Of a stretch of DNA of 64,000 nt, positions 4,797 through 45,099 are shown piece after piece (position 1 is the stretch's first letter; every line of letters begins with the position of its first letter). Made by a program: the position numbers and the translations under genes. A model generated the notes under the pieces. That model saw only the letters and a list, made by a program, of their open reading frames with translations. It did no database searches and was not told the origin of the DNA. This DNA comes from Actinomycetota bacterium (GTDB taxonomy: Bacteria; Actinomycetota; Acidimicrobiia; Acidimicrobiales; MedAcidi-G1). Location: the NCBI GenBank assembly GCA_014381745.1, contig JACNLA010000026.1:77069-141068 (forward strand), given 5' to 3'.

Positions 4797-4872
4797 CGGT
4801 GGGCAACCCGGTATGGCGGGGTTGGAACGGGTAGCAACATGACCGATGATCGCAGGATGAGGGAGGGGTGCC

Positions 4873-5376
4873 GTGTCTGAAAACCGGATGGAGGTCAGCC
4901 GGGCCATTGCAGCTGAGCCGGCCGAGGTGTTCGCCGTGCTGGCCAGCCCTGCCGGACATGTCGCGATCGACGCATCAGGCATGTTGATGTCGGCTGACGG
5001 GCCGCCTGTAACCGCCGTAGGTGACCGTTTCGACGTGGAGATGGACCGCGACTCCATACGCGACTTCGACCTCGGTGAATACACGGTCACGGTGGTGATC
5101 GAGACCTTCGACCAGGACCGTGAGATCGCCTGGACCATCGACGGTTCGATACAGCCGCCGATCGGCCACTATTACGGCTACAGGCTTGAGGCAATCGAGG
5201 GAGGAACCACGGTCACGTCGTACTACGACTGGTCCGAAATCCACGAGGCCTATGCCGGTGTGGCGGACGCCATCTTCCCCGTGATCTCTGAGACGAACCT
5301 GCTGGCTACCCTCGGGATCCTTGCCCGCACGGTCGCCACCGGGCGGCCACGGCCCGGAGCAAAGCGCTCGAACTGA
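4873..5376 (+). CDS. SRPBCC (START/polyketide-cyclase-like) family protein
   Basis: 167 residues. The opening beta-strand and helix (VSRAIAAEPAEVFAVLASP) and the later W-T-I-D-G and TTVTSYYDWSEI strands fit the SRPBCC helix-grip fold, which binds hydrophobic ligands in a deep pocket. GTG 4873 is preceded by a strong GGGAGGGG. It lacks catalytic motifs that would assign a reaction. It sits 76 bp after the aldolase gene on the same strand and may be co-transcribed with it. Function is unknown. Confidence 0.7.
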   Translation: MSENRMEVSRAIAAEPAEVFAVLASPAGHVAIDASGMLMSADGPPVTAVGDRFDVEMDRDSIRDFDLGEYTVTVVIETFDQDREIAWTIDGSIQPPIGHYYGYRLEAIEGGTTVTSYYDWSEIHEAYAGVADAIFPVISETNLLATLGILARTVATGRPRPGAKRSN

Positions 5377-5529
5377 CCGTTGTCGGCACTGATGACATTG
5401 CTACATGGTTGTGCCACAGGTCCGGGCCGCGCTCGATGGAACATGCCGTTGAAGCCTTTGTCCAACCGGTAGCTACTCAATCCCTTGGGGGTGCTTGTAA
5501 AGCCCTTCTGGCTGGATGATGATCACCAC

Positions 5530-11273: not shown

Positions 11274-12097
11274 CGGTGACTGTCGGGGACCGGGTCGTGG
11301 CAACCGGTCTGGCCCACCTGCAACGCGATCTGATGACGCTCGACCGGGTGGTCGTGGCGTTCTCGGGCGGCGCCGATTCGGCCCTGCTGGCCAGGGTCGC
11401 CCACGACACACTCGGTTCGGACCGGGTCCAGGCGGTGACGGCCGTGTCGCCATCGCTCGCGGGGGAGCAGTTGGCTGATGCCGAGGCGCTCGCAACCGAA
11501 TGGGGTCTTCGGTGGTCGACCGTGTCGACCACCGAGATGGAGTCGGCTGCCTACCGGGTCAACGACTCCGACCGGTGTGCTCACTGCAAGGACGCCCTCA
11601 TGGACGTGCTCGCTCCGATCGCTGCTGTCGACGGTGCCACGGTTGTGCTCGGCGTGAACCTGGACGACCTGACGGATCACAGACCCGGCCAGGTTGCCGC
11701 AGCCGACCGTGGAGCACGGTTTCCACTTGCCGATGCCGGGCTAACCAAGGCCGACGTCCGGGACCTCTCCCGCAGTCTCGGCCTTCGCACCTGGGACAAG
11801 CCCGCCGCTGCATGCCTCGCCTCCCGTGTCCCCTACGGCACCGAGGTGACGGTGTCTGTGCTCTCGGTGGTGGACCGTGCCGAGGAGGCACTGCGGGCCA
11901 TGGGCTTTCATGACCTGCGCATTCGCCACTACGGCGACACCGCACGGATCGAGGTCCCGGTCGAGCGTCTTGGCGATGTTCTCGAGAGGCGGGAGGAAGT
12001 CGTCGGGGCCATCCGGGCCGTCGGATACGGCTACGTGACCCTTGACCTGGAGGGGCTGCGTTCGGGAAATCTGAACCAGGCTCTCAAGGGCGTCTGA
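11270..12097 (+). CDS. larE: ATP-dependent sacrificial sulfur transferase LarE
   Basis: 275 residues. The PP-loop SGGADSALLARVA (about residues 32-44) binds ATP, and ACLASRVPYGTEV contains the cysteine that LarE sacrifices when sulfurating the nickel-pincer cofactor of lactate racemase. A second Cys pair lies in DRCAHCK. LarB, LarC and a lactate racemase are absent from the window, so the role may be in that cofactor made elsewhere or another sulfur transfer. TTG 11270 overlaps the chdC stop; GTG 11276 is an equally possible start. Confidence 0.88.
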   Translation: MTVTVGDRVVATGLAHLQRDLMTLDRVVVAFSGGADSALLARVAHDTLGSDRVQAVTAVSPSLAGEQLADAEALATEWGLRWSTVSTTEMESAAYRVNDSDRCAHCKDALMDVLAPIAAVDGATVVLGVNLDDLTDHRPGQVAAADRGARFPLADAGLTKADVRDLSRSLGLRTWDKPAAACLASRVPYGTEVTVSVLSVVDRAEEALRAMGFHDLRIRHYGDTARIEVPVERLGDVLERREEVVGAIRAVGYGYVTLDLEGLRSGNLNQALKGV

Positions 12098-12109
12098 GGG
12101 CGGAGTCGC

Positions 12110-14419
12110 ATGACCGTTGTCTTCAGCGTCGCCGACCTTATGGCCGACGGTTCTCTGAGCGGATCTGCGTTCTGTGATTCGCTGACCGTTCGTACCGACC
12201 AGTTTCTGGAAGATGTCTTCAGGGCCGGGGACCCGCCCGAGGGGACAGCCCTGGTGGCGGTAGGTGGCTACGGCCGCGGGGAGCTGTGCCCCGGGAGCGA
12301 CATCGACGTGATCCTGCTCCATCGTTCCGACACGGACGTGTCGGACTTTGCCGAGAGGCTCTGGTACCCGTTGTGGGATGCGGGCCTCAAGTTGGGCCAT
12401 CAGGTGGGAACCGTCGAACAGATTCTGGCAGTGGCCGACGGCGACCTGGATACCGCCACCAGCCTCCTGGCTGCCCGACACGTCGCTGGCGACACGACCC
12501 TGGTGACGGGGCTTTCGGAGGGTGGGCGGCTCCAGTGGATGGACCGGGCTGACGAGAACCTGGCGGCGCTGGCCGCAAGGGTCGATGAACGACATCTGCA
12601 GCACGGTGAGGTTGCCTTCCTCCTTGAACCCGAGCTGAAGGAGGGGCGTGGTGGTCTGCGCGACGTCCATACGCTGGCATGGGCCGAGGCCACAGAACCG
12701 GTGTTGCACGCCTCTGAGGCGGAGGGCCTCTCTGATGCCTTTGAGGTGCTTCTCACGGTCCGGGTGGAGTTGCACAGGGTGACCGGTGGCCGTTCCGACC
12801 GGCTTCTCCTGGAACTGCAGGACGAGGTGGCCGAGCAGCTCGGACATGGCGACGCCGACCGGCTCATGGCCGATGTAGCCGCGGCTGCCGGTGCCATCAC
12901 CTGGGTGGGTGACGGCGCCTACAGGCGGATCCGCCGTGCCCTCGCCAACCAACAGAGCCCCTTGTCGGTCGGCTTTTCCGGCCCTGAGGTGGACGATCTG
13001 GGCTCAGGGCTGATGTTGGACGGTGACAGGCTGTGCCTGGCAGATGGGGTTTCCATCGATGACGACCCGGTGCTGCCCCTGCGCGTGGCAGCCAGGGCGG
13101 CGGCCGAGGGGGCCTATCTGGATCGACTCATGTTGGCGAGCCTGGCATCCGATTCACCACCCATGCCCGAGCCGTGGCCCGACGAGGCACGCGAATGCCT
13201 TGTGGACCTCTTGTCGGCTGGGCCAGACCTCGTGCAGGTTGTGGAGGACCTGGACCAGGTCGGGTTGTGGGTCCGCCTATTTCCCGAGTGGGAGCCATGC
13301 CGGCACCGCCCTCAGCGCAACGCCTACCACCGCTTCACCGTCGACCGTCACCTGCTTGAGGCCACGGCCGGGGCTGCGCGCCTCTGTGACGCCGTCGAGC
13401 GACCGGACCTGTTGGTGGTGGGTGCGCTGCTCCACGACATAGGCAAGGGCTACCCGGGGGACCACACAGAGGTTGGAATGGGGCTGGTTCGCACCATCGC
13501 TACACGGATGGGCTATCCGGCGGCCGATGTTGACGTTCTGGTGGCGATGGTGAGACACCACCTGCTCCTGCCAGATGTCGCCACCCGGCGCGACCTGGAC
13601 GATTCAGGGACGATCCTGGCAGTCGCCCAGGCCGTGGATGGTCGGGGTCTGCTGGGCCTGCTGGCGGCCCTCACAGAGGCCGACTCGCTGGCTACCGGCC
13701 CCTCAGCATGGAGCCGCTGGAAGGCGGACCTGGTTGGTGACCTGGTGGCGCGTGTCGACTACGTGCTGGCTGGCGGCGACGTCTCCGAACTGGTCGTTGG
13801 CCTGTTCCCGAGTCCAGAGCAACGTGTGATGTTGGAGGGCGAAGAGGATGTGGTCTGGGGGGAGGGTCCGACCCTCACTGTCGTGACCACCGACAGGCCC
13901 GGTGTGTTTTCCAAGGCTGCCGGCGTGTTGGCCCTCAACGGCCTCGACGTGGTCGATGCATCGGCACACACTGAAATGGGCCGTGCTCTGGCGGTGTTCC
14001 GGGTGACGGGTGTGTTCGGGCAGGTTCCCGACTGGCCGGTGGTCGCTGAGCAGGTGGAGCGGGCCCTTGCGGGTCGTCTGGCGCTAGCTGCCCGCCTGGG
14101 CGAGCGTTCCCGTACCTACAGGCAGGCGCCCACGGCGGCCAGGCCGGCACGGCCGCGGGTGACTGTCGACAACGAGACATCGGCTGCGGCGACGGTTCTG
14201 GAGGTGAGCTGCCCTGACGGGGTCGGGGTGTTGTACCGGATCACCCGGGCGTTCGCCGAGCTTGACCTTGACATCGTTAGCGCCCGCGTGCAGACCATCG
14301 GCTCGGACGTGGTCGACGCCTTCTACCTGCGCGACGGCTCTGGTGACCGGATCACGGACCCCGACCACCTTGCCGAGATCGAGCTGTCGGTACTGCGCTG
14401 GGTGGTTGTCGACTTCTGA
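12110..14419 (+). CDS. glnD: [Protein-PII] uridylyltransferase GlnD
   Basis: 769 residues with the full GlnD order. The nucleotidyltransferase motif is VGGYGRGELCPGSDIDV (about 51-67), an HD domain has LLHDIGKGYPGDHT (about 440), and two C-terminal ACT domains begin near 585 (LTVVTTDRPGVFSKAAGVL) and 695 (VLEVSCPDGVGVLYRITRAF). It modifies and de-modifies the PII nitrogen sensor in response to glutamine. It is somewhat shorter than proteobacterial GlnD but complete. The larE gene ends 12 bp upstream, so the two may share a transcript. Confidence 0.95.
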   Translation: MTVVFSVADLMADGSLSGSAFCDSLTVRTDQFLEDVFRAGDPPEGTALVAVGGYGRGELCPGSDIDVILLHRSDTDVSDFAERLWYPLWDAGLKLGHQVGTVEQILAVADGDLDTATSLLAARHVAGDTTLVTGLSEGGRLQWMDRADENLAALAARVDERHLQHGEVAFLLEPELKEGRGGLRDVHTLAWAEATEPVLHASEAEGLSDAFEVLLTVRVELHRVTGGRSDRLLLELQDEVAEQLGHGDADRLMADVAAAAGAITWVGDGAYRRIRRALANQQSPLSVGFSGPEVDDLGSGLMLDGDRLCLADGVSIDDDPVLPLRVAARAAAEGAYLDRLMLASLASDSPPMPEPWPDEARECLVDLLSAGPDLVQVVEDLDQVGLWVRLFPEWEPCRHRPQRNAYHRFTVDRHLLEATAGAARLCDAVERPDLLVVGALLHDIGKGYPGDHTEVGMGLVRTIATRMGYPAADVDVLVAMVRHHLLLPDVATRRDLDDSGTILAVAQAVDGRGLLGLLAALTEADSLATGPSAWSRWKADLVGDLVARVDYVLAGGDVSELVVGLFPSPEQRVMLEGEEDVVWGEGPTLTVVTTDRPGVFSKAAGVLALNGLDVVDASAHTEMGRALAVFRVTGVFGQVPDWPVVAEQVERALAGRLALAARLGERSRTYRQAPTAARPARPRVTVDNETSAAATVLEVSCPDGVGVLYRITRAFAELDLDIVSARVQTIGSDVVDAFYLRDGSGDRITDPDHLAEIELSVLRWVVVDF

Positions 14420-14458: not shown

Positions 14459-15163
14459 ATGAGCGACCCGGCCCACCTGCCTCCGTCCCGTCAGGAGTTG
14501 CTTCGCTGGGCCGAGTCGCTTTCGGCTATCGCCCGCACCGGCCTGGGCTTCACCGAGGTGCTCTACGAACAGGAGCGCTTTGAGGAGGTGCTGAGGGTTG
14601 CTGCCGACATCCGGGTGCGTGCCGAGTCTGGTGGATCCGGAGGGGTCACCGATGACCTGATGCGGGAGTGGATGGCCTCGGTGGGCGAGGGGGTGCCCGG
14701 GTACGTAACGCCCAAGTCGACGGTGGCGGCGGTGGTCGGCAACGACGACGGCGAGTTGCTGCTCGTGCAGCGGGCCGAATCCGGGCTCTGGCTCTACCCG
14801 ACCGGTTGGGCCGACGTGGGCTACTCGCCTTCTGAGGTTGTCATCAAGGAGGTCCTGGAGGAGACGGGCATCCACTGTGAGGTGGTCAGGCCCATCGCCA
14901 TCCTGGACGGCTTCCGACTGGGCTTCACCGGGATTCCGCTCTACTCGCTGGTGTTCCACTGCCGCATGACCGGCGGCGACCTGAAGGCCCATCCCTTGGA
15001 GTGCAGGGATGTCGGGTTCTTCGCCGAGGGCGACCTGCCGGAGGACACGATTCTTCCCGAGGAGTGGGCTGACGAGGCGTTTCGGGCCATCCGGGGCGAG
15101 CATGTCGAGGTTCGCTTCGATGCGCCGCGTGACCCGCCGTGGCAGGGAGAAATCGAGGTCTGA
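14459..15163 (+). CDS. NUDIX hydrolase
   Basis: 234 residues. An N-terminal helical extension (about 1-75; LPPSRQELLRWAESLSAIAR) of the NUDIX_N type precedes the catalytic fold. The Nudix box is GWADVGYSPSEVVIKEVLEETGI (about 117-140; split here as a family pattern), with the catalytic EVLEE intact but Lys in place of the usual Arg of REUxEE. Such proteins hydrolyse nucleoside diphosphates linked to other groups; homologues are often annotated as ADP-ribose or nucleotide-sugar pyrophosphatases. The TGA stop lies within the left 30-bp repeat flanking the AbiE cassette. Confidence 0.85.
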   Translation: MSDPAHLPPSRQELLRWAESLSAIARTGLGFTEVLYEQERFEEVLRVAADIRVRAESGGSGGVTDDLMREWMASVGEGVPGYVTPKSTVAAVVGNDDGELLLVQRAESGLWLYPTGWADVGYSPSEVVIKEVLEETGIHCEVVRPIAILDGFRLGFTGIPLYSLVFHCRMTGGDLKAHPLECRDVGFFAEGDLPEDTILPEEWADEAFRAIRGEHVEVRFDAPRDPPWQGEIEV

Positions 15164-15189
15164 GGGTCAGGGCCTGCCGGGCTGGTTGC
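15160..15189 (+). repeat. 30-bp direct repeat, left copy (DR-L)
   Basis: Identical over 30 bp to 16732-16761. It starts with CTGAGGGTCA, where TGA is the NUDIX stop, and ends in GGCTGGTTGC. Read on the minus strand it encodes NQPGRP and a stop, the same C-terminal end as the PAC2 gene. Confidence 0.95.
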
Positions 15190-15194
15190 CTAGG

Positions 15195-16058
15195 TCACCT
15201 CGAGTTGATGAGAGAGCTGAGCAGTGGGTCACTGAAGGCCATGACCTGTTCGAGAAGGTCAGCGAAAAACTCCGGAGTTGTCTCGACGAGACGCTGCTTT
15301 CGGCGCCATGCCGTCCATCGCTGCTGGGCGAGGGGGCCATAGCCGGCCAGAACTTCTCGTAGAGGATGGAGTGTGACCTGGCGGTGGCTAGCCGTTCGGG
15401 CGATTGCTTCCATGAGAGAGCCATCCTCTATGTCAGCCTCTGCGAGATTTGATATGTCGACGAAGTCCCGCCAGCGCGTGTTGGCTGTGCCTCGTTGGAT
15501 GGCCGTCACGATCTTTTCGGCCAGGACCAGTTCTATTCGGTATCCGAGGATGTGTATCGGCTGACCACCGAGGGAACGTGGGATGTCAACCGACTCGGGT
15601 TGGGGCCACAGCGGATCACCGAAGTTGATGTCGACGTGGAAACGAATCTGGCCGGTCGACAGGGTGCCGAAAATGCGTGCGCGGGTTCCTTCGTAACGGG
15701 CGCCGTCCCGGATTGATTCGACGGTGGTGGCCGCGGTGTCAAAGATGAGGCCGTCGTCTACCACAACTGTCAGAATTTCGTTCATGGTCTGTCTTGTCGA
15801 GTCAACGTCGTCCGCGACCCCGGTCTTGGCGAGGTCGACGTCTCTGGTGGGCCTGCGAGCGTTGAAGGCGGCGAGGAGGACCCCACCTTTCAGCACGAAT
15901 TGGGAGGCATGTTGGGATTGGACGAGCCTGTCGAGGAAGCCTTCGAGCCCGTAGATCTGGAGCAGCTCATCTGTGGGTCGCTCTGTCGCTGCGGCCAGTT
16001 TGCGTAGGGCCAGGTACACGGAGCCGGATCGGGTTGCATGTGTCGGGCTTCTGGTCAC
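15195..16058 (-). CDS. abiEii: AbiEii/AbiGii-type nucleotidyltransferase toxin
   Basis: 287 residues. Near residue 55 the motif VLKGGVLLAAF is followed by RPTRDVDLAKTG, the GG(S/V)-x-D-x-D nucleotidyltransferase core of the AbiEii/MenT family. Later blocks, LAEKIVTAIQRGTANTRWRDFVDI, are typical of the family. AbiEii toxins transfer nucleotides to cellular targets and give abortive infection against phage, held in check by AbiEi. It overlaps abiEi by 4 bp and ends 5 bp from the left repeat. Activity and target are not known for this protein. Confidence 0.88.
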   Translation of the reverse strand: MTRSPTHATRSGSVYLALRKLAAATERPTDELLQIYGLEGFLDRLVQSQHASQFVLKGGVLLAAFNARRPTRDVDLAKTGVADDVDSTRQTMNEILTVVVDDGLIFDTAATTVESIRDGARYEGTRARIFGTLSTGQIRFHVDINFGDPLWPQPESVDIPRSLGGQPIHILGYRIELVLAEKIVTAIQRGTANTRWRDFVDISNLAEADIEDGSLMEAIARTASHRQVTLHPLREVLAGYGPLAQQRWTAWRRKQRLVETTPEFFADLLEQVMAFSDPLLSSLINSR

Positions 16059-16636
16059 AACAGGATCTCAAGGACGCGCCTGATGGGCGACTCGGCAACA
16101 GGGAAGTGGCCTGCCATCCTGAGCAGGTCAGATGCTTGGTTCCCGGGCACCTTGATCCAGCGTTTGAGGGCTTCTACTGCCTGTTCGGGACCGTAGAGGT
16201 GGGTGAGCCGGAAGGCATCGACGATCGAGCGGACGGGCCCGTAGATGCCGATGGTGATTTCACCCAGGACGGTGAGGCTGGTTCGGCCAACCTCAAAGGA
16301 GTTCTCGTCGAATCGATGCCAGGTGACGGGTGCACTGGTGCGCGGCGTGCGCTTCCGGCGGGGGAGCGCAACGTTGATCATGGGTGGGATCTCGTCGATG
16401 AGGCCGTGTCGTGACAGCGAGGTTGTCAGGCACAGGGTTGCGTAGGGTGCTCGTATAGCGATCTCCAGCAGGTCGGGGTCCGCTTCGACATGCGGCTTGG
16501 TGAAGATTCCGCGTGCCAGTTGGTTAATCGTCCCTTCGTCGCGCCACTGGTAGAGGACGCGGTCTGAGAGGCCGAGGGTCCGGGCTCTGGCGTGGGTGAA
16601 GACGGGAGGGAGGTCTTCGACGACTACGGATCGCAT
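16055..16636 (-). CDS. abiEi: AbiEi-type antitoxin / transcriptional repressor
   Basis: 193 residues from ATG 16636. An N-terminal winged-helix region (FTHARARTLGLSDRVLYQWRDEGTINQLARGIF, spanning about 12-45) matches the AbiEi antitoxin HTH that reads a helix then Arg-Gly-x-Tyr/Phe. The C-terminal half is the AbiEi antitoxin domain. A longer start at 16654 is possible, but its first codons would lie inside a perfect inverted repeat, and a -10 hexamer TACACT sits 7 nt before 16636, so the shorter leaderless form is preferred. AbiEi homologues repress their own operon. Confidence 0.85.
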   Translation of the reverse strand: MRSVVVEDLPPVFTHARARTLGLSDRVLYQWRDEGTINQLARGIFTKPHVEADPDLLEIAIRAPYATLCLTTSLSRHGLIDEIPPMINVALPRRKRTPRTSAPVTWHRFDENSFEVGRTSLTVLGEITIGIYGPVRSIVDAFRLTHLYGPEQAVEALKRWIKVPGNQASDLLRMAGHFPVAESPIRRVLEILL

Positions 16637-16643
16637 GTATGAA

Positions 16644-16649
16644 AGTGTA
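16644..16649 (-). promoter_or_regulatory. -10 hexamer for leaderless abiEi
   Basis: On the minus strand TACACT is followed by 7 nt and ATG 16636. It lies inside one arm of the 8-bp inverted repeat, so a bound repressor would block it. Confidence 0.5.
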
Positions 16650-16674
16650 GCCATATCATCACTAGGTGGCTACA
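16646..16674. promoter_or_regulatory. Inverted repeat, candidate AbiEi operator
   Basis: Perfect 8-bp arms TGTAGCCA (16646-16653) and TGGCTACA (16667-16674) are separated by 13 bp. The arms sit over the presumed -10 and near the -35 of the abiE promoter, where an autoregulating AbiEi dimer would bind. Confidence 0.55.
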
Positions 16675-16731
16675 GTTGTATGCATCATCCCGGAACGGTG
16701 CCTTCCGGCTGGATTGGTGTCCTCGGGGAAG

Positions 16732-16761
16732 CTGAGGGTCAGGGCCTGCCGGGCTGGTTGC
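16732..16761 (+). repeat. 30-bp direct repeat, right copy (DR-R)
   Basis: Identical over 30 bp to 15160-15189. Positions 16739-16761 are the last codons and stop of the PAC2 gene. Confidence 0.95.
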
Positions 16762-17611
16762 GGAGGAAGTCCTCGATGTCGGCCACCAGCCGGTCGGGGT
16801 TGTCGTCTGGTCCCTCGTCGAAGTCCACCTCGAGGCGTTCGACGTACTCGGCGGTGTCGTCGTCTTCGGCGACCAGATCGCTGACCTGGCGTTCATAGGC
16901 TGCTGAGGCGATCTCAAGGTCGGTGCAGGGGATGGATGTTCCGAACACTGTGCTGAGGCCCTCGACCAGGGCTAGGGCCGCCTTTGGGGAGGGGGCGCTG
17001 GAGACGTAGGCCGGCACACTCGCCCACAGCGAGGCGGTCGGTATGCCGGCTGCCCGCAGGCCCGCCCCGAGCACGCCGACGATGCCGGTGGGTCCCTCGT
17101 AGGTGGATGGCGAGAGGCTGAGGTGTTCGGCGATCTCAGCGTCGTCGGAGGTGCCATAGACCTGTACGGGCCTGGTGTGTGGAACGTCGGTTAGCAGCGC
17201 TCCAAGGGTGACGGCAAGGCTGGCACCGACCTCTTCGGCGGTTGCGACCACGTGGTCCACGAAAGTCCGCCAGCGCAGCTGGGGTTCGTGGCCGGTCAGG
17301 ACGACAAGGTCGTGGTTGGTCCCGGGGATATGTGCGGCGTACACGCTTGTGGTCGGCCAGGCGATGTGGCGACTGCCATCGTCGTCGAGGTGGACGCTGG
17401 GTCGGGCCACGGTGAAGTCAAAGAAGTCCTCGGCATCGATGGTTGCGACCTCGATCGACTCGAAGTGGTCACGTACGTAGCGGGCGGCGGTGGAGGAGGC
17501 CTCGCCTGCGTCGTTCCAGCCCTCGAAGGCCGCTATCAGGATCGGCGATTCAAGGTCGCTGAGCCTCTCGGCGTCGGTCCAGTGCAGGTGCGGTGATGGT
17601 GAGCCCGTCAT
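16739..17611 (-). CDS. PAC2 family protein
   Basis: 290 residues. The opening SPILIAAFEGWNDAGEASSTA and the middle VVLTGHEPQLRWRTF and GIVGVLGAGLRAAGIPTASLWASVPAYV blocks are characteristic of the PAC2 (proteasome-assembly-chaperone-like) family, widespread in actinobacteria with no settled function. The C-terminal region is acidic (about 255-285) and ends NQPGRP inside the right direct repeat. A TAGCCT hexamer 7 nt before the ATG suggests leaderless transcription, divergent from the acetyltransferase gene. Confidence 0.85.
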   Translation of the reverse strand: MTGSPSPHLHWTDAERLSDLESPILIAAFEGWNDAGEASSTAARYVRDHFESIEVATIDAEDFFDFTVARPSVHLDDDGSRHIAWPTTSVYAAHIPGTNHDLVVLTGHEPQLRWRTFVDHVVATAEEVGASLAVTLGALLTDVPHTRPVQVYGTSDDAEIAEHLSLSPSTYEGPTGIVGVLGAGLRAAGIPTASLWASVPAYVSSAPSPKAALALVEGLSTVFGTSIPCTDLEIASAAYERQVSDLVAEDDDTAEYVERLEVDFDEGPDDNPDRLVADIEDFLRNQPGRP

Positions 17612-33301: not shown

Positions 33302-33638
33302 CCGACAAGTCTGGCCGGAAGGGTGGCGATTACCACCCGGTAACCGTGGGTCAGCCGATTCCCTGCTTGCCAAGGTGTCAACGTGTCCAAGGTTCTCTCG
33401 AGGATCGGCCTGAGTCCAGATCCTGGCGAGTCGACTCTGGATGGGTTTCTTCGGAACTTGTGCGGAGCGACGCAGTCCACGGCTCAGCGGCCGCACTCGA
33501 AGTTGTTGAACGCGACGGTCGCCGATTGGCGCGGCCTGCACAATGCCCGGGGCGGTTCACCTAGCACCATGAGTTGTCTAACATGGGGGCATTCCACTGT
33601 TGGGACGTCGCCATGTGACGGCCCAGGAGGAAATTCAG
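33302..33638. other. Intergenic region between GT4 and the interrupted protease
   Basis: No convincing gene here. It must hold the divergent promoters of the GT4 gene and the protease. A TAACAT near 33580 could be a -10 for the protease, with a leader of about 50 nt ending in AGGAGG at 33625-33630. No RNA gene or repeat was recognised. Confidence 0.4.
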
Positions 33639-34940
33639 GTGACACGGCTACTGCTTGTGGCGTCCACCCTGGCAGCACTATCGCTCGGCGTGGCTGCTGC
33701 GTCGGCTGGCGCTCAGACTGATCCTGGCGCCGAGGCCGAGGCGGTCGCTCCCGGCCTGGAGTTGGAGGCCGGACAATACTCCAGAGAGTACGGGGTGACC
33801 GCCGACGAAGCTCTTCGACGTTTCGAACGCATCGCAGAACTCAAGACGGCGCTTCGGGAAATTGCCGAAACCGAAGATGGTCGGGTCGCAGGTTGGAGCA
33901 TTGTGCACGAACCAGAGTTCGGAGGCTGGATTTCCTTGGTCGGTTCGGAGGAACCGAGTTTGCGCTCGACCCTCCTCACTTCGGAGAATAGCGACATCTG
34001 GATCGACGTTGGTGCGACACACACCTTGGCAGAACTGGTCAAGGCGATGTCGATCAAGTCGAACTTTGAGGCGATCCCTGAGGTGATGCGAGCCAGGATC
34101 GCATACCGAGATATCAGTCTCGAACAAAACAGCATCGTCATCGCACTGGATCGCGACGTTCCTCCAGAACCGGCTAGTGAAGATGACCGGACTTCTGAAG
34201 TTCTGCCGATTCAGTCCCTCAAACTACTACAAGCCGCTGAGGCCCTCGAAGAAATTCTCGAGGCGGATACGGGACTCCCTTTCATCGTGACGACTGGTGC
34301 GAGATCAGAACCCGACGCGATCTATGGGGGCGAACACAACGACCACAGCGGTGGTCGTTGCACGAGTGCGTTCGCAGTGCTCGACGGCAGCACTCGAGGA
34401 ATGCTCACCGCCGGTCACTGCGCGGACGTCACAACGCATTGGCGGTCACGCACGTCTTCCCACGCAGGCGGCAGCTATACAGCCACTCACCGAGACACCG
34501 TCTGGGGTGACGATGGCGACTCGTCCTGGTACACGACAACGCAATGGGAGTCCGACAACTTCTACGTCACAACTACTTCTACTCGAGACGCTACCGGACA
34601 CGAGGTGCGGTCTAACATGAACGGTGACTACGTCTGCCACTTCGGCACTTCATCGGGCTACTCATGCGGAACAGTCGTCTCCACGAACCACGATCCATAC
34701 TACTCAGTGTGTGGTTGGTAGCTCGGATGTGACAACCGATGGGTCAAGGTCGAAAGCAGCACGCTGGAGTCCTGTGGTGGCGATAGTGGAGGGCCTTGGT
34801 TCAACAATCGGACTGCCTACGGCGTCCACTCGGGAAGTGACAACGGGTCGGATTGCTCTGCATCCGGCACTGACTACGCCACGTTCACAGCGATGGATGA
34901 TGTGCTCCGCGACCTCGACCTGACGTTCGCGACGAACTAG
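33639..34940 (+). pseudogene. Secreted S1-family serine protease interrupted by an in-frame TAG
   Basis: GTG 33639 has a strong AGGAGG 8 nt upstream and opens a signal peptide (TRLLLVASTLAALSLGVAAA, then SAGAQ). A pro-region follows (about 50-230), then a chymotrypsin-like domain with the catalytic His in MLTAGHCAD and a likely Asp in GDDGDSSWY. A TAG at 34719-34721 ends the frame after YYSVCGW. The same frame continues through ESCGGDSGGPW (the catalytic Ser) to TAG at 34938-34940. The N-terminal product alone cannot be an active protease. The cause may be a true nonsense mutation, a base error or readthrough. GC is lower than in neighbours. Confidence 0.85.
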
Positions 34941-34975
34941 ATCCCAAAACGTTGGTGCCGACAAGGGGAGTAATA

Positions 34976-35389
34976 GTGACGACACGAACCCGACTCTGGG
35001 TCGCTCTTGTGGTCGCCAGCCTGATCATGTCAGCGTGTGTAGATGATTTCAGCAGCGACCTCGGTGGCACTGAATGGGTTATCGTTTCGATGGCCGGGTT
35101 TCCTCAAGACAATATCGTTGAGGGCTCCTTCGACTTCACCAACGATCGCATCCGCTTCCATGACGGAGTCAACTTCTCGAGCCGGTTAATCGACTGGACC
35201 GAAGAAGGATTCACTGTGGAGGGCGGAGGAGACACTACGGACGTCGGCGTCGAAGACGGTGACCCACAGCGGTACCTGACTATGTTCCTCTCAGTTGATT
35301 CGAGCATCGGTGTCGCTGAAGATGAACAAGGAAGGCTCACGCTGTCGCGCAACGACGGCCTCACCCTGACTGCGGAACCCGGCCAATGA
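34976..35389 (+). CDS. Putative lipoprotein, META/HslJ-like
   Basis: 137 residues from GTG 34976, which has AAGGGGAG 5 nt upstream. The N-terminus is a lipoprotein signal with lipobox IMSAC (Cys near residue 22). The mature part starts LGGTEWVIVSMAGFPQ and ends in a GRLTLSRNDGLTLTA strand pattern resembling META/HslJ domains; this is a weak fold-level resemblance. It lies 35 bp after the interrupted protease in the same lower-GC patch and may share its history. Confidence 0.65.
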   Translation: MTTRTRLWVALVVASLIMSACVDDFSSDLGGTEWVIVSMAGFPQDNIVEGSFDFTNDRIRFHDGVNFSSRLIDWTEEGFTVEGGGDTTDVGVEDGDPQRYLTMFLSVDSSIGVAEDEQGRLTLSRNDGLTLTAEPGQ

Positions 35390-35619
35390 TTGTCTCGGCG
35401 AATTGGTCGCCGTGCTCATCGTGTTCATGCAGTCAAGGCGGAAGAGGCGTGGAGTGAGACAGGACGGGTAGAGGGTCCGTGCGTGTCGGGGTGGGCGGCG
35501 ACTCCCGGGGCCCGCAACCCTCTTACCTGTGTGTATCAACTCTGGTTGGCGAACCGCCCCGGGTCACACCAGGGCCCGGGCAATGCCTTGGTCAGTTCAT
35601 CGACGCTGCCCAGGCCCCG

Positions 35620-35625
35620 TATAGA
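35620..35625 (+). promoter_or_regulatory. -10 hexamer TATAGA ahead of a 24-codon ORF
   Basis: TATAGA is close to the TATAAT consensus and is followed by exactly 8 nt and GTG 35634, the geometry of other leaderless genes in the window. Confidence 0.5.
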
Positions 35626-35633
35626 GTCGGTTC

Positions 35634-35708
35634 GTGCGAGCGCTGGTGCAACCGGTGGAGCGGGCTTCGGTGTACGACGACCCCTTGACCAACACAGCCG
35701 GGGTCTGA
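35634..35708 (+). CDS. Candidate 24-residue leaderless upstream peptide
   Basis: GTG 35634 opens a 24-codon frame (MRALVQPVERASVYDDPLTN then TAGV) whose TGA at 35706-35708 overlaps the ATG of the downstream methyltransferase (TGATG). It has no family. The promoter position and the stop-start overlap argue for real translation with coupling, but the peptide is too short to support by coding statistics. It could be a leader peptide or simply a device that delivers ribosomes to the next gene. Confidence 0.35.
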   Translation: MRALVQPVERASVYDDPLTNTAGV

Positions 35709-44583: not shown

Positions 44584-44715
44584 GTTCGCCGGTTGCTGAG
44601 ACCCTCCAACGCCATCTCGACTGTCACACCGTCCCAATAGGTTCTGGGCAACTTCTCCCTCGTCTACCTGCCACTTCTGCGGAGTGGCTTGCCGCCGACA
44701 GGAAGAAGATGGACA

Positions 44716-45099
44716 ATGAAGGTTGATGAACAAGATCGGCAGTCGCTTCGCGAGCGGCTCGACACGGTGCTCGGTGAGTATCCGGCCGAGGTCCTGATGG
44801 GCATGCTTGAGGGCATTGCCGGTCAGGATCTGGCTACCCGCGACGACGTGCTCGCAATCGGTACCCGCCTGGACGGGATCGGTACCCGCCTGGACCAGAT
44901 GGACCGCCGCCTGGACCAGATGGACCGCCGCCTCGACAAGGTTGACACCCGGTTCGAGATGGTTGATGCCCAGCTCGAGAGACTGGATGCCCGGTTCGAG
45001 TCACGCATCGCCGAACAAACGAGGATGATGGTGTTCACAGGCGTAGGCATCGCCATGAGCTGCTGGGCTCTGTTGTTCGCAGCCCTCGGATTCGGGTGA
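44716..45099 (+). CDS. Small coiled-coil protein with C-terminal membrane segment
   Basis: 127 residues from ATG 44716 (AGGAAG upstream). A short N-terminal part is followed by heptad repeats (RLDQMDRRLDQMDRRLDKVD, about 60-80, extending to about 100) and one hydrophobic helix near the end (VGIAMSCWALLFAALG). It likely forms a membrane-tethered homo-oligomer. I recognise no named family. At the DNA level the heptads are near-perfect 21-bp repeats (44887-44926), which may vary in number between strains. Confidence 0.7.
   Translation: MKVDEQDRQSLRERLDTVLGEYPAEVLMGMLEGIAGQDLATRDDVLAIGTRLDGIGTRLDQMDRRLDQMDRRLDKVDTRFEMVDAQLERLDARFESRIAEQTRMMVFTGVGIAMSCWALLFAALGFG

What the first reader, a model, noticed from the sequence alone, without database searches (positions are those of the whole stretch)
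15160..16761. AbiE toxin-antitoxin cassette inserted between two convergent genes and flanked by perfect 30-bp direct repeats
Seen: the 30 bp at 15160-15189 recur exactly at 16732-16761, and everything between them is abiEii, abiEi and their promoter. The repeat carries both the NUDIX stop (TGA) and the last codons and stop of PAC2 (TCA on plus), so collapsing the two copies rebuilds a tidy convergent junction with stops 3 bp apart. Known: integrated elements often use gene 3' ends as attachment sites and duplicate them, and AbiE is a phage-defence module. Inference: this is a minimal att-flanked defence islet with no integrase, mobilised in trans or by homologous exchange. A 1.57-kb single-operon cargo of this sort is, to my knowledge, not a described element class.
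Basis: partly seen in the sequence, partly recalled or inferred. Interest (0 to 1): 0.8.

Follow-up and report, generated by a model that had tools for sequence, protein, structure and literature searches.

The report
AbiE toxin-antitoxin islet in direct repeats
A 1.5-kb pair of phage-defence (AbiE) genes was recently inserted between two ordinary bacterial genes and is bracketed by a perfect 30-base repeat; the insertion is real and absent from every relative examined, but it most likely belongs to an already known kind, a small genomic island without its own integrase.

Summary
The 30-bp repeat (15160-15189, 16732-16761) is exact, occurs only twice in the 2.19-Mb genome and brackets just an abiEi-abiEii operon. 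In 1,400 random spans the longest bracketing exact repeat was 16 bp. Collapsing the copies gives the NUDIX/PAC2 junction of the congeners; all 35 family genomes with both genes at hand have an empty site, and the other six genus genomes lack this AbiE. The insertion is therefore recent and horizontal (60.5% GC against 65.4%).

AbiE looks complete: all toxin residues known to matter are present, with an antitoxin-type operator.

Elsewhere in the class, five related AbiE operons sit between direct repeats made of tRNA sequence, in 2.3-5.7-kb islands where no intact integrase was recognised; one keeps an integrase tail. This fits a CIME-like or trans-mobilised islet. But the 30-mer has no recombinase-like dyad, the junction holds no other mobile cargo in 42 genomes, and no viral contig carries the exact core. 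Site-specific integration is likely, not shown. The claim of a new element class is not supported, because integrase-less att-flanked islands (CIMEs) are described. Verdict: a clean, unusually small member of a known kind.

The parts
15160..15189 (.). left copy of the 30-bp direct repeat (candidate attL); holds the NUDIX stop codon
   Evidence: only two copies in the genome
15195..16058 (-). abiEii, 287-aa nucleotidyltransferase toxin, GTG start
   Evidence: PF08843 E 1.9e-33; PADLOC AbiEii E 3.7e-77; catalytic residues invariant
16055..16654 (-). abiEi, antitoxin/repressor, 199 aa from the first ATG; the ATG ending at 16636 is the likelier start because the operator overlaps the first one (inference)
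   Evidence: PADLOC AbiEi E 1.2e-47
16646..16674 (.). candidate AbiEi operator, TGTAGCCA-N13-TGGCTACA
   Evidence: the arms differ together in L059 and L066 (TCATAGCCA-N13-TGGCTATGA), same spacing
16732..16761 (.). right copy of the 30-bp direct repeat (candidate attR); holds the PAC2 stop and last codons
14459..15163 (+). left flank: NUDIX hydrolase gene, native
   Evidence: PF00293; next to PAC2 in relatives
16739..17611 (-). right flank: PAC2-family gene, native
   Evidence: PF09754; present in all 61 genomes searched

Best explanation
A complete, self-regulated type IV toxin-antitoxin operon (AbiE) was acquired horizontally and inserted at the adjoining 3' ends of the convergent NUDIX and PAC2 genes. 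The 30-bp direct repeats are most likely the attL/attR ends left by a site-specific recombinase, probably a tyrosine integrase, supplied in trans or once carried by the element and since lost, as in CIMEs. The repeat restores both gene ends, so the insertion breaks nothing; AbiE then gives phage defence and/or prevents its own loss. Shown: the insertion, that it is recent, the intact junction, an AbiE with all known key residues and an operator, and no integrase in the islet. Inferred: that a recombinase made the repeats, which one, whether the islet can still move, and the defence role here.
For: Exact, genome-unique 30-bp repeats far beyond background; empty junction in 35 family genomes and AbiEii absent from the other six genus genomes; foreign composition; none of the four other extra stretches in the window has a repeat at its edges; five related AbiE operons sit between direct repeats of tRNA sequence with no intact integrase recognised, one with an integrase tail; the genome holds two island-type tyrosine integrases that could act in trans.
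Against: The 30-mer has no inverted-repeat core above chance; no integrase or other mobile cargo at this junction in relatives; no phage carrying the exact core; the genome's island integrases lie near tRNA genes, not protein genes; no donor AbiE closer than 58% identity.
Confidence: 0.55

Rival explanations
1. The 30-bp repeat is a target-site duplication from a non-site-specific insertion: a staggered break repaired with a captured AbiE fragment, or an unknown transposase.
For: Both copies look like the host's own junction sequence; no recurrent use of the site; no recombinase-like dyad.
Against: No Ku gene found in the 96%-complete genome; no terminal inverted repeats above chance, P = 0.18; no transposase in the insert; 30 bp is long for a transposon duplication (own knowledge).
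Confidence: 0.22
2. Homologous recombination: a circle or linear fragment already carrying the 30-mer beside AbiE recombined with the junction, or AbiE came in with flanking genes from a strain that already had it, as in minimal mobile elements.
For: 30 bp is near the lower limit for homologous recombination (own knowledge); replacement through the flanks would leave the same picture.
Against: It only moves the question to the donor, which must already have had the repeats; no relative has AbiE here.
Confidence: 0.12
3. Assembly artefact: a circle or a second molecule sharing the 30-mer was joined into the contig.
For: The genome is a 44-contig draft and reads are not available here.
Against: Metagenome assemblers usually finish with word lengths well over 30 bp (own knowledge), and a free molecule with this species-specific 30-mer would itself need the recombination event.
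Confidence: 0.06

Closest known systems
CIME (cis-mobilizable element; Pavlovic et al. 2004, as reviewed in PMC5704250)
   Same: Integrated segment without integration genes, bounded by attL/attR-like direct repeats at gene 3' ends
   Different: 1.57 kb with a single operon; att function untested; not next to a helper element; no remnant of an integrase
AbiE type IV toxin-antitoxin system (PMC3985639) with Rv2827c-type operator (PMC7319586)
   Same: Bicistronic abiEi-abiEii, all known key toxin residues, operator pair with 13-bp spacing
   Different: Nothing essential; carried here as the only cargo of an islet
AbiE-bearing islands at tRNA sequence in the same class (L059, L067, L104, L107, L112)
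   Same: AbiE between direct repeats, no intact integrase recognised
   Different: 2.3-5.7 kb, repeats are tRNA sequence, most carry further genes
Minimal mobile elements (first named in Neisseria)
   Same: Small variable module between two conserved genes
   Different: Those are exchanged by homologous recombination in the flanks and are not defined by direct repeats (own knowledge); no alternative mobile cargo found here

Membership tests
AbiE type IV toxin-antitoxin system | Adjacent AbiEi and AbiEii homologues in one operon | tested here: met
AbiE type IV toxin-antitoxin system | Key residues of motifs I-IV in AbiEii | tested here: met
   G58/G59, R69, D73, D75, K182, R189, D201, all invariant in nine sequences, placed by spacing against PMC3985639
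AbiE type IV toxin-antitoxin system | Toxicity, neutralisation, phage defence | not testable with these tools
   needs bench work
CIME / integrase-less att-flanked island | Insertion relative to an empty site | tested here: met
   35 empty family junctions
CIME / integrase-less att-flanked island | Direct repeats at both ends that restore the target | tested here: met
CIME / integrase-less att-flanked island | No recombinase or transfer gene inside | tested here: met
   only abiEi and abiEii in the insert
CIME / integrase-less att-flanked island | Repeats are working att sites of a known recombinase, or the element derives from an ICE/IME | tested here: inconclusive
   no dyad, no integrase-bearing relative at the site, no remnant seen; no excision data
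Transposon or MITE | Terminal inverted repeats and a short target duplication | tested here: not met
   best terminal match at chance level, P = 0.18; 30-bp repeat
Minimal mobile element | Alternative cargo at the same junction in relatives | tested here: not met
   35 family junctions empty; four order-level genomes have other sequence between the two genes, ordinary chromosomal-type genes where readable, without bracketing repeats over 13 bp

The most novel reading that the evidence does not exclude
A distinct class of minimal defence islets: single toxin-antitoxin operons carrying only their own att-type ends, moved in trans by resident or phage integrases into tRNA and protein-gene 3' ends across this class of bacteria.
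Probability: 0.17. Interest if true: 0.65.

Novelty: new member of a known kind. Interest (0 to 1): 0.4.

Why it matters
It is a clean before/after case of one defence operon entering a genome with nothing else. If the repeats are working att sites, it shows how small a trans-mobilised defence unit can be. The wider pattern, related AbiE operons in small repeat-flanked islands without an intact integrase, bears on how defence genes spread without mobility genes of their own.

Tried and rejected
Dispersed repeat: rejected, two copies genome-wide with 3 mismatches allowed. Chance repeat: rejected. Other cargo at the same junction: the stretches between the two genes in L196, L198, L202 and L206 (order level) lack bracketing repeats over 13 bp and look like ordinary chromosomal genes where readable. 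Phage attP: no exact hit in viral contigs; one degenerate hit (L161) shows no further resemblance. Transposon ends and recombinase dyad: not above chance. End joining: no Ku. Serine recombinase: none. L066 (AbiE, 32-bp repeat beside tRNA-Ala) first looked like a twin, but its AbiEii is truncated and the right repeat copy lies in native sequence in a sister genome, so it is not counted as a clean att case. L060, L105 and L115 have long repeats around AbiE that look dispersed or intragenic and are also not counted.

Full report
Observation. The exact 30-bp repeat at 15160-15189 and 16732-16761 is present as described. It brackets abiEii (15195-16058, minus), abiEi (16055-16654, minus, 4-bp overlap) and about 77 bp upstream of abiEi. 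Collapsing the copies leaves the NUDIX and PAC2 stops 3 bp apart. The core is found only at these two places in the genome, even with 3 mismatches. In about 480 kb of this genome it is one of three exact repeats of at least 18 bp at 0.3-8 kb spacing; the other two are spaced 306 and 531 bp. In 1,000 random spans of contig C22 and 400 of two congeners the longest bracketing repeat was 16 bp.

Empty sites. PAC2 was found in all 61 genomes searched. In 29 family genomes (six of the same genus) the fetched locus shows NUDIX and PAC2 adjacent and convergent with no AbiE; six further family genomes are also empty. The congeners' junctions, such as CTGAGGGTCAGGGCTTACCGGGCTGGTT in L007, align with the collapsed junction. 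None of the other six genus genomes has this AbiEii, and only 2 of 48 family genomes do. The insertion is thus specific to this species among those sampled. Its GC is 60.5% against 65.4% for the window, and GC3 is 0.69-0.75 against 0.81-0.85 for the two neighbours. The two copies have not diverged, although most of the left copy lies outside any gene, which also points to a recent event (inference).

A local control. Against G005 and G006 the window has extra sequence at five places: 4797-5487, 11282-12121, the AbiE islet, 33344-35702 and 44584-45094. Only the islet has a direct repeat of 9 bp or more at its edges. Repeats are therefore not a by-product of every gene gain here.

What the cargo is. 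AbiEii matches PF08843 and PADLOC AbiEii, and AbiEi matches PADLOC AbiEi. The residues shown by mutation to matter in S. agalactiae AbiEii (PMC3985639) correspond by spacing to G58/G59, R69, D73, D75, K182, R189 and D201, all invariant in nine related sequences. Upstream of abiEi is TGTAGCCA-N13-TGGCTACA at 16646-16674; in L059 and L066 the arms are TCATAGCCA/TGGCTATGA with the same spacing, and 13 bp is the gap reported within the operator pairs of Rv2827c (PMC7319586). The islet is therefore a self-contained, probably functional and autoregulated unit. Function was not tested.

Related AbiE operons. This AbiEii family is rare: 13 of 298 genomes of the order and 24 of 394 of the class. Of 29 loci examined, five besides the window have AbiE between direct repeats made of tRNA sequence: L107 (30 bp, tRNA-Ile 3' end), L059 (17 bp, tRNA-Leu 3' end), L067 (95 bp, upstream and 5' part of a tRNA-Leu), L104 (23 bp) and L112 (45 bp). 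L104 and L112 were recognised as tRNA 3' ends from their sequence; ARAGORN reports no intact tRNA there. Spacings are 2.3 to 5.7 kb. No intact integrase was recognised among the ORFs listed or the selected proteins scanned; L112 keeps a C-terminal integrase tail beside its repeat, 63% identical to the integrase fragment on C11 of the window's genome. Counting all exact repeats of 17 bp or more, 10 of 29 AbiE loci are bracketed, against 44 of 595 non-independent control spans from the same loci. Those regions are rich in mobile DNA in general, so this is an enrichment, not proof. The nearest relatives of the window's AbiEii are 54-58% identical, so no donor is identified.

Mechanism. The most likely account is insertion by a site-specific recombinase supplied in trans or since lost. 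The genome has one Xer-like and two island-type tyrosine recombinases (the labels Xer-like and island-type are by inspection), no serine recombinase and no Ku. Three results count against it: the 30-mer has no dyad above chance; the NUDIX-PAC2 junction holds no other mobile cargo in the 42 relatives where both genes could be seen, of which 38 are adjacent and four have ordinary sequence between them; and no viral contig carries the exact core. A 30-bp target duplication by an unknown route therefore stays a serious rival.

Comparison with the known. Islands that lost integration and transfer genes but keep attL and attR are known as CIMEs (PMC5704250), and helper-dependent elements in general are reviewed in PMC11389934. 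The window element works like a very small CIME. Membership is not fully shown, because att function was not established. The claim of a new element class is not supported by the present evidence, but the case is clean, and the recurrence of AbiE in repeat-flanked islets without an intact integrase is worth a dedicated survey.

Noticed in passing
window 4797-5487, 11282-12121, 33344-35702, 44584-45094: Four other stretches that G005 and G006 lack, without edge repeats: a polyketide-cyclase-like (SRPBCC) gene, a LarE-like gene (Pfam hit NAD_synthase), two unknown genes, and a small coiled-coil-like ORF.
   Followed up: partly
L068 (G000:C11, contig end) and L070 (G000:C23): Two island-type tyrosine integrases of the window's own genome, one beside tRNA-Pro(ggg) and cut by the contig end, one about 2 kb from tRNA-Val(tac).
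   Followed up: partly
L066 8598-9322 and L167 (G070:C45): A 725-bp AbiEi segment is 98.6% identical in two congeneric genomes but at different sites, while the shared flanks are 85-92% identical; AbiEii is truncated in one and absent from the other.
   Followed up: partly
L105 884-3040: AbiE operon lying between long near-identical copies of a fibronectin-like repeat, apparently inside a large repeat-protein gene.
   Followed up: no
L112 and its contig G343:C31: The same tRNA 3'-end sequence recurs several times along one contig, suggesting a tandem array of integrated islands.
   Followed up: no
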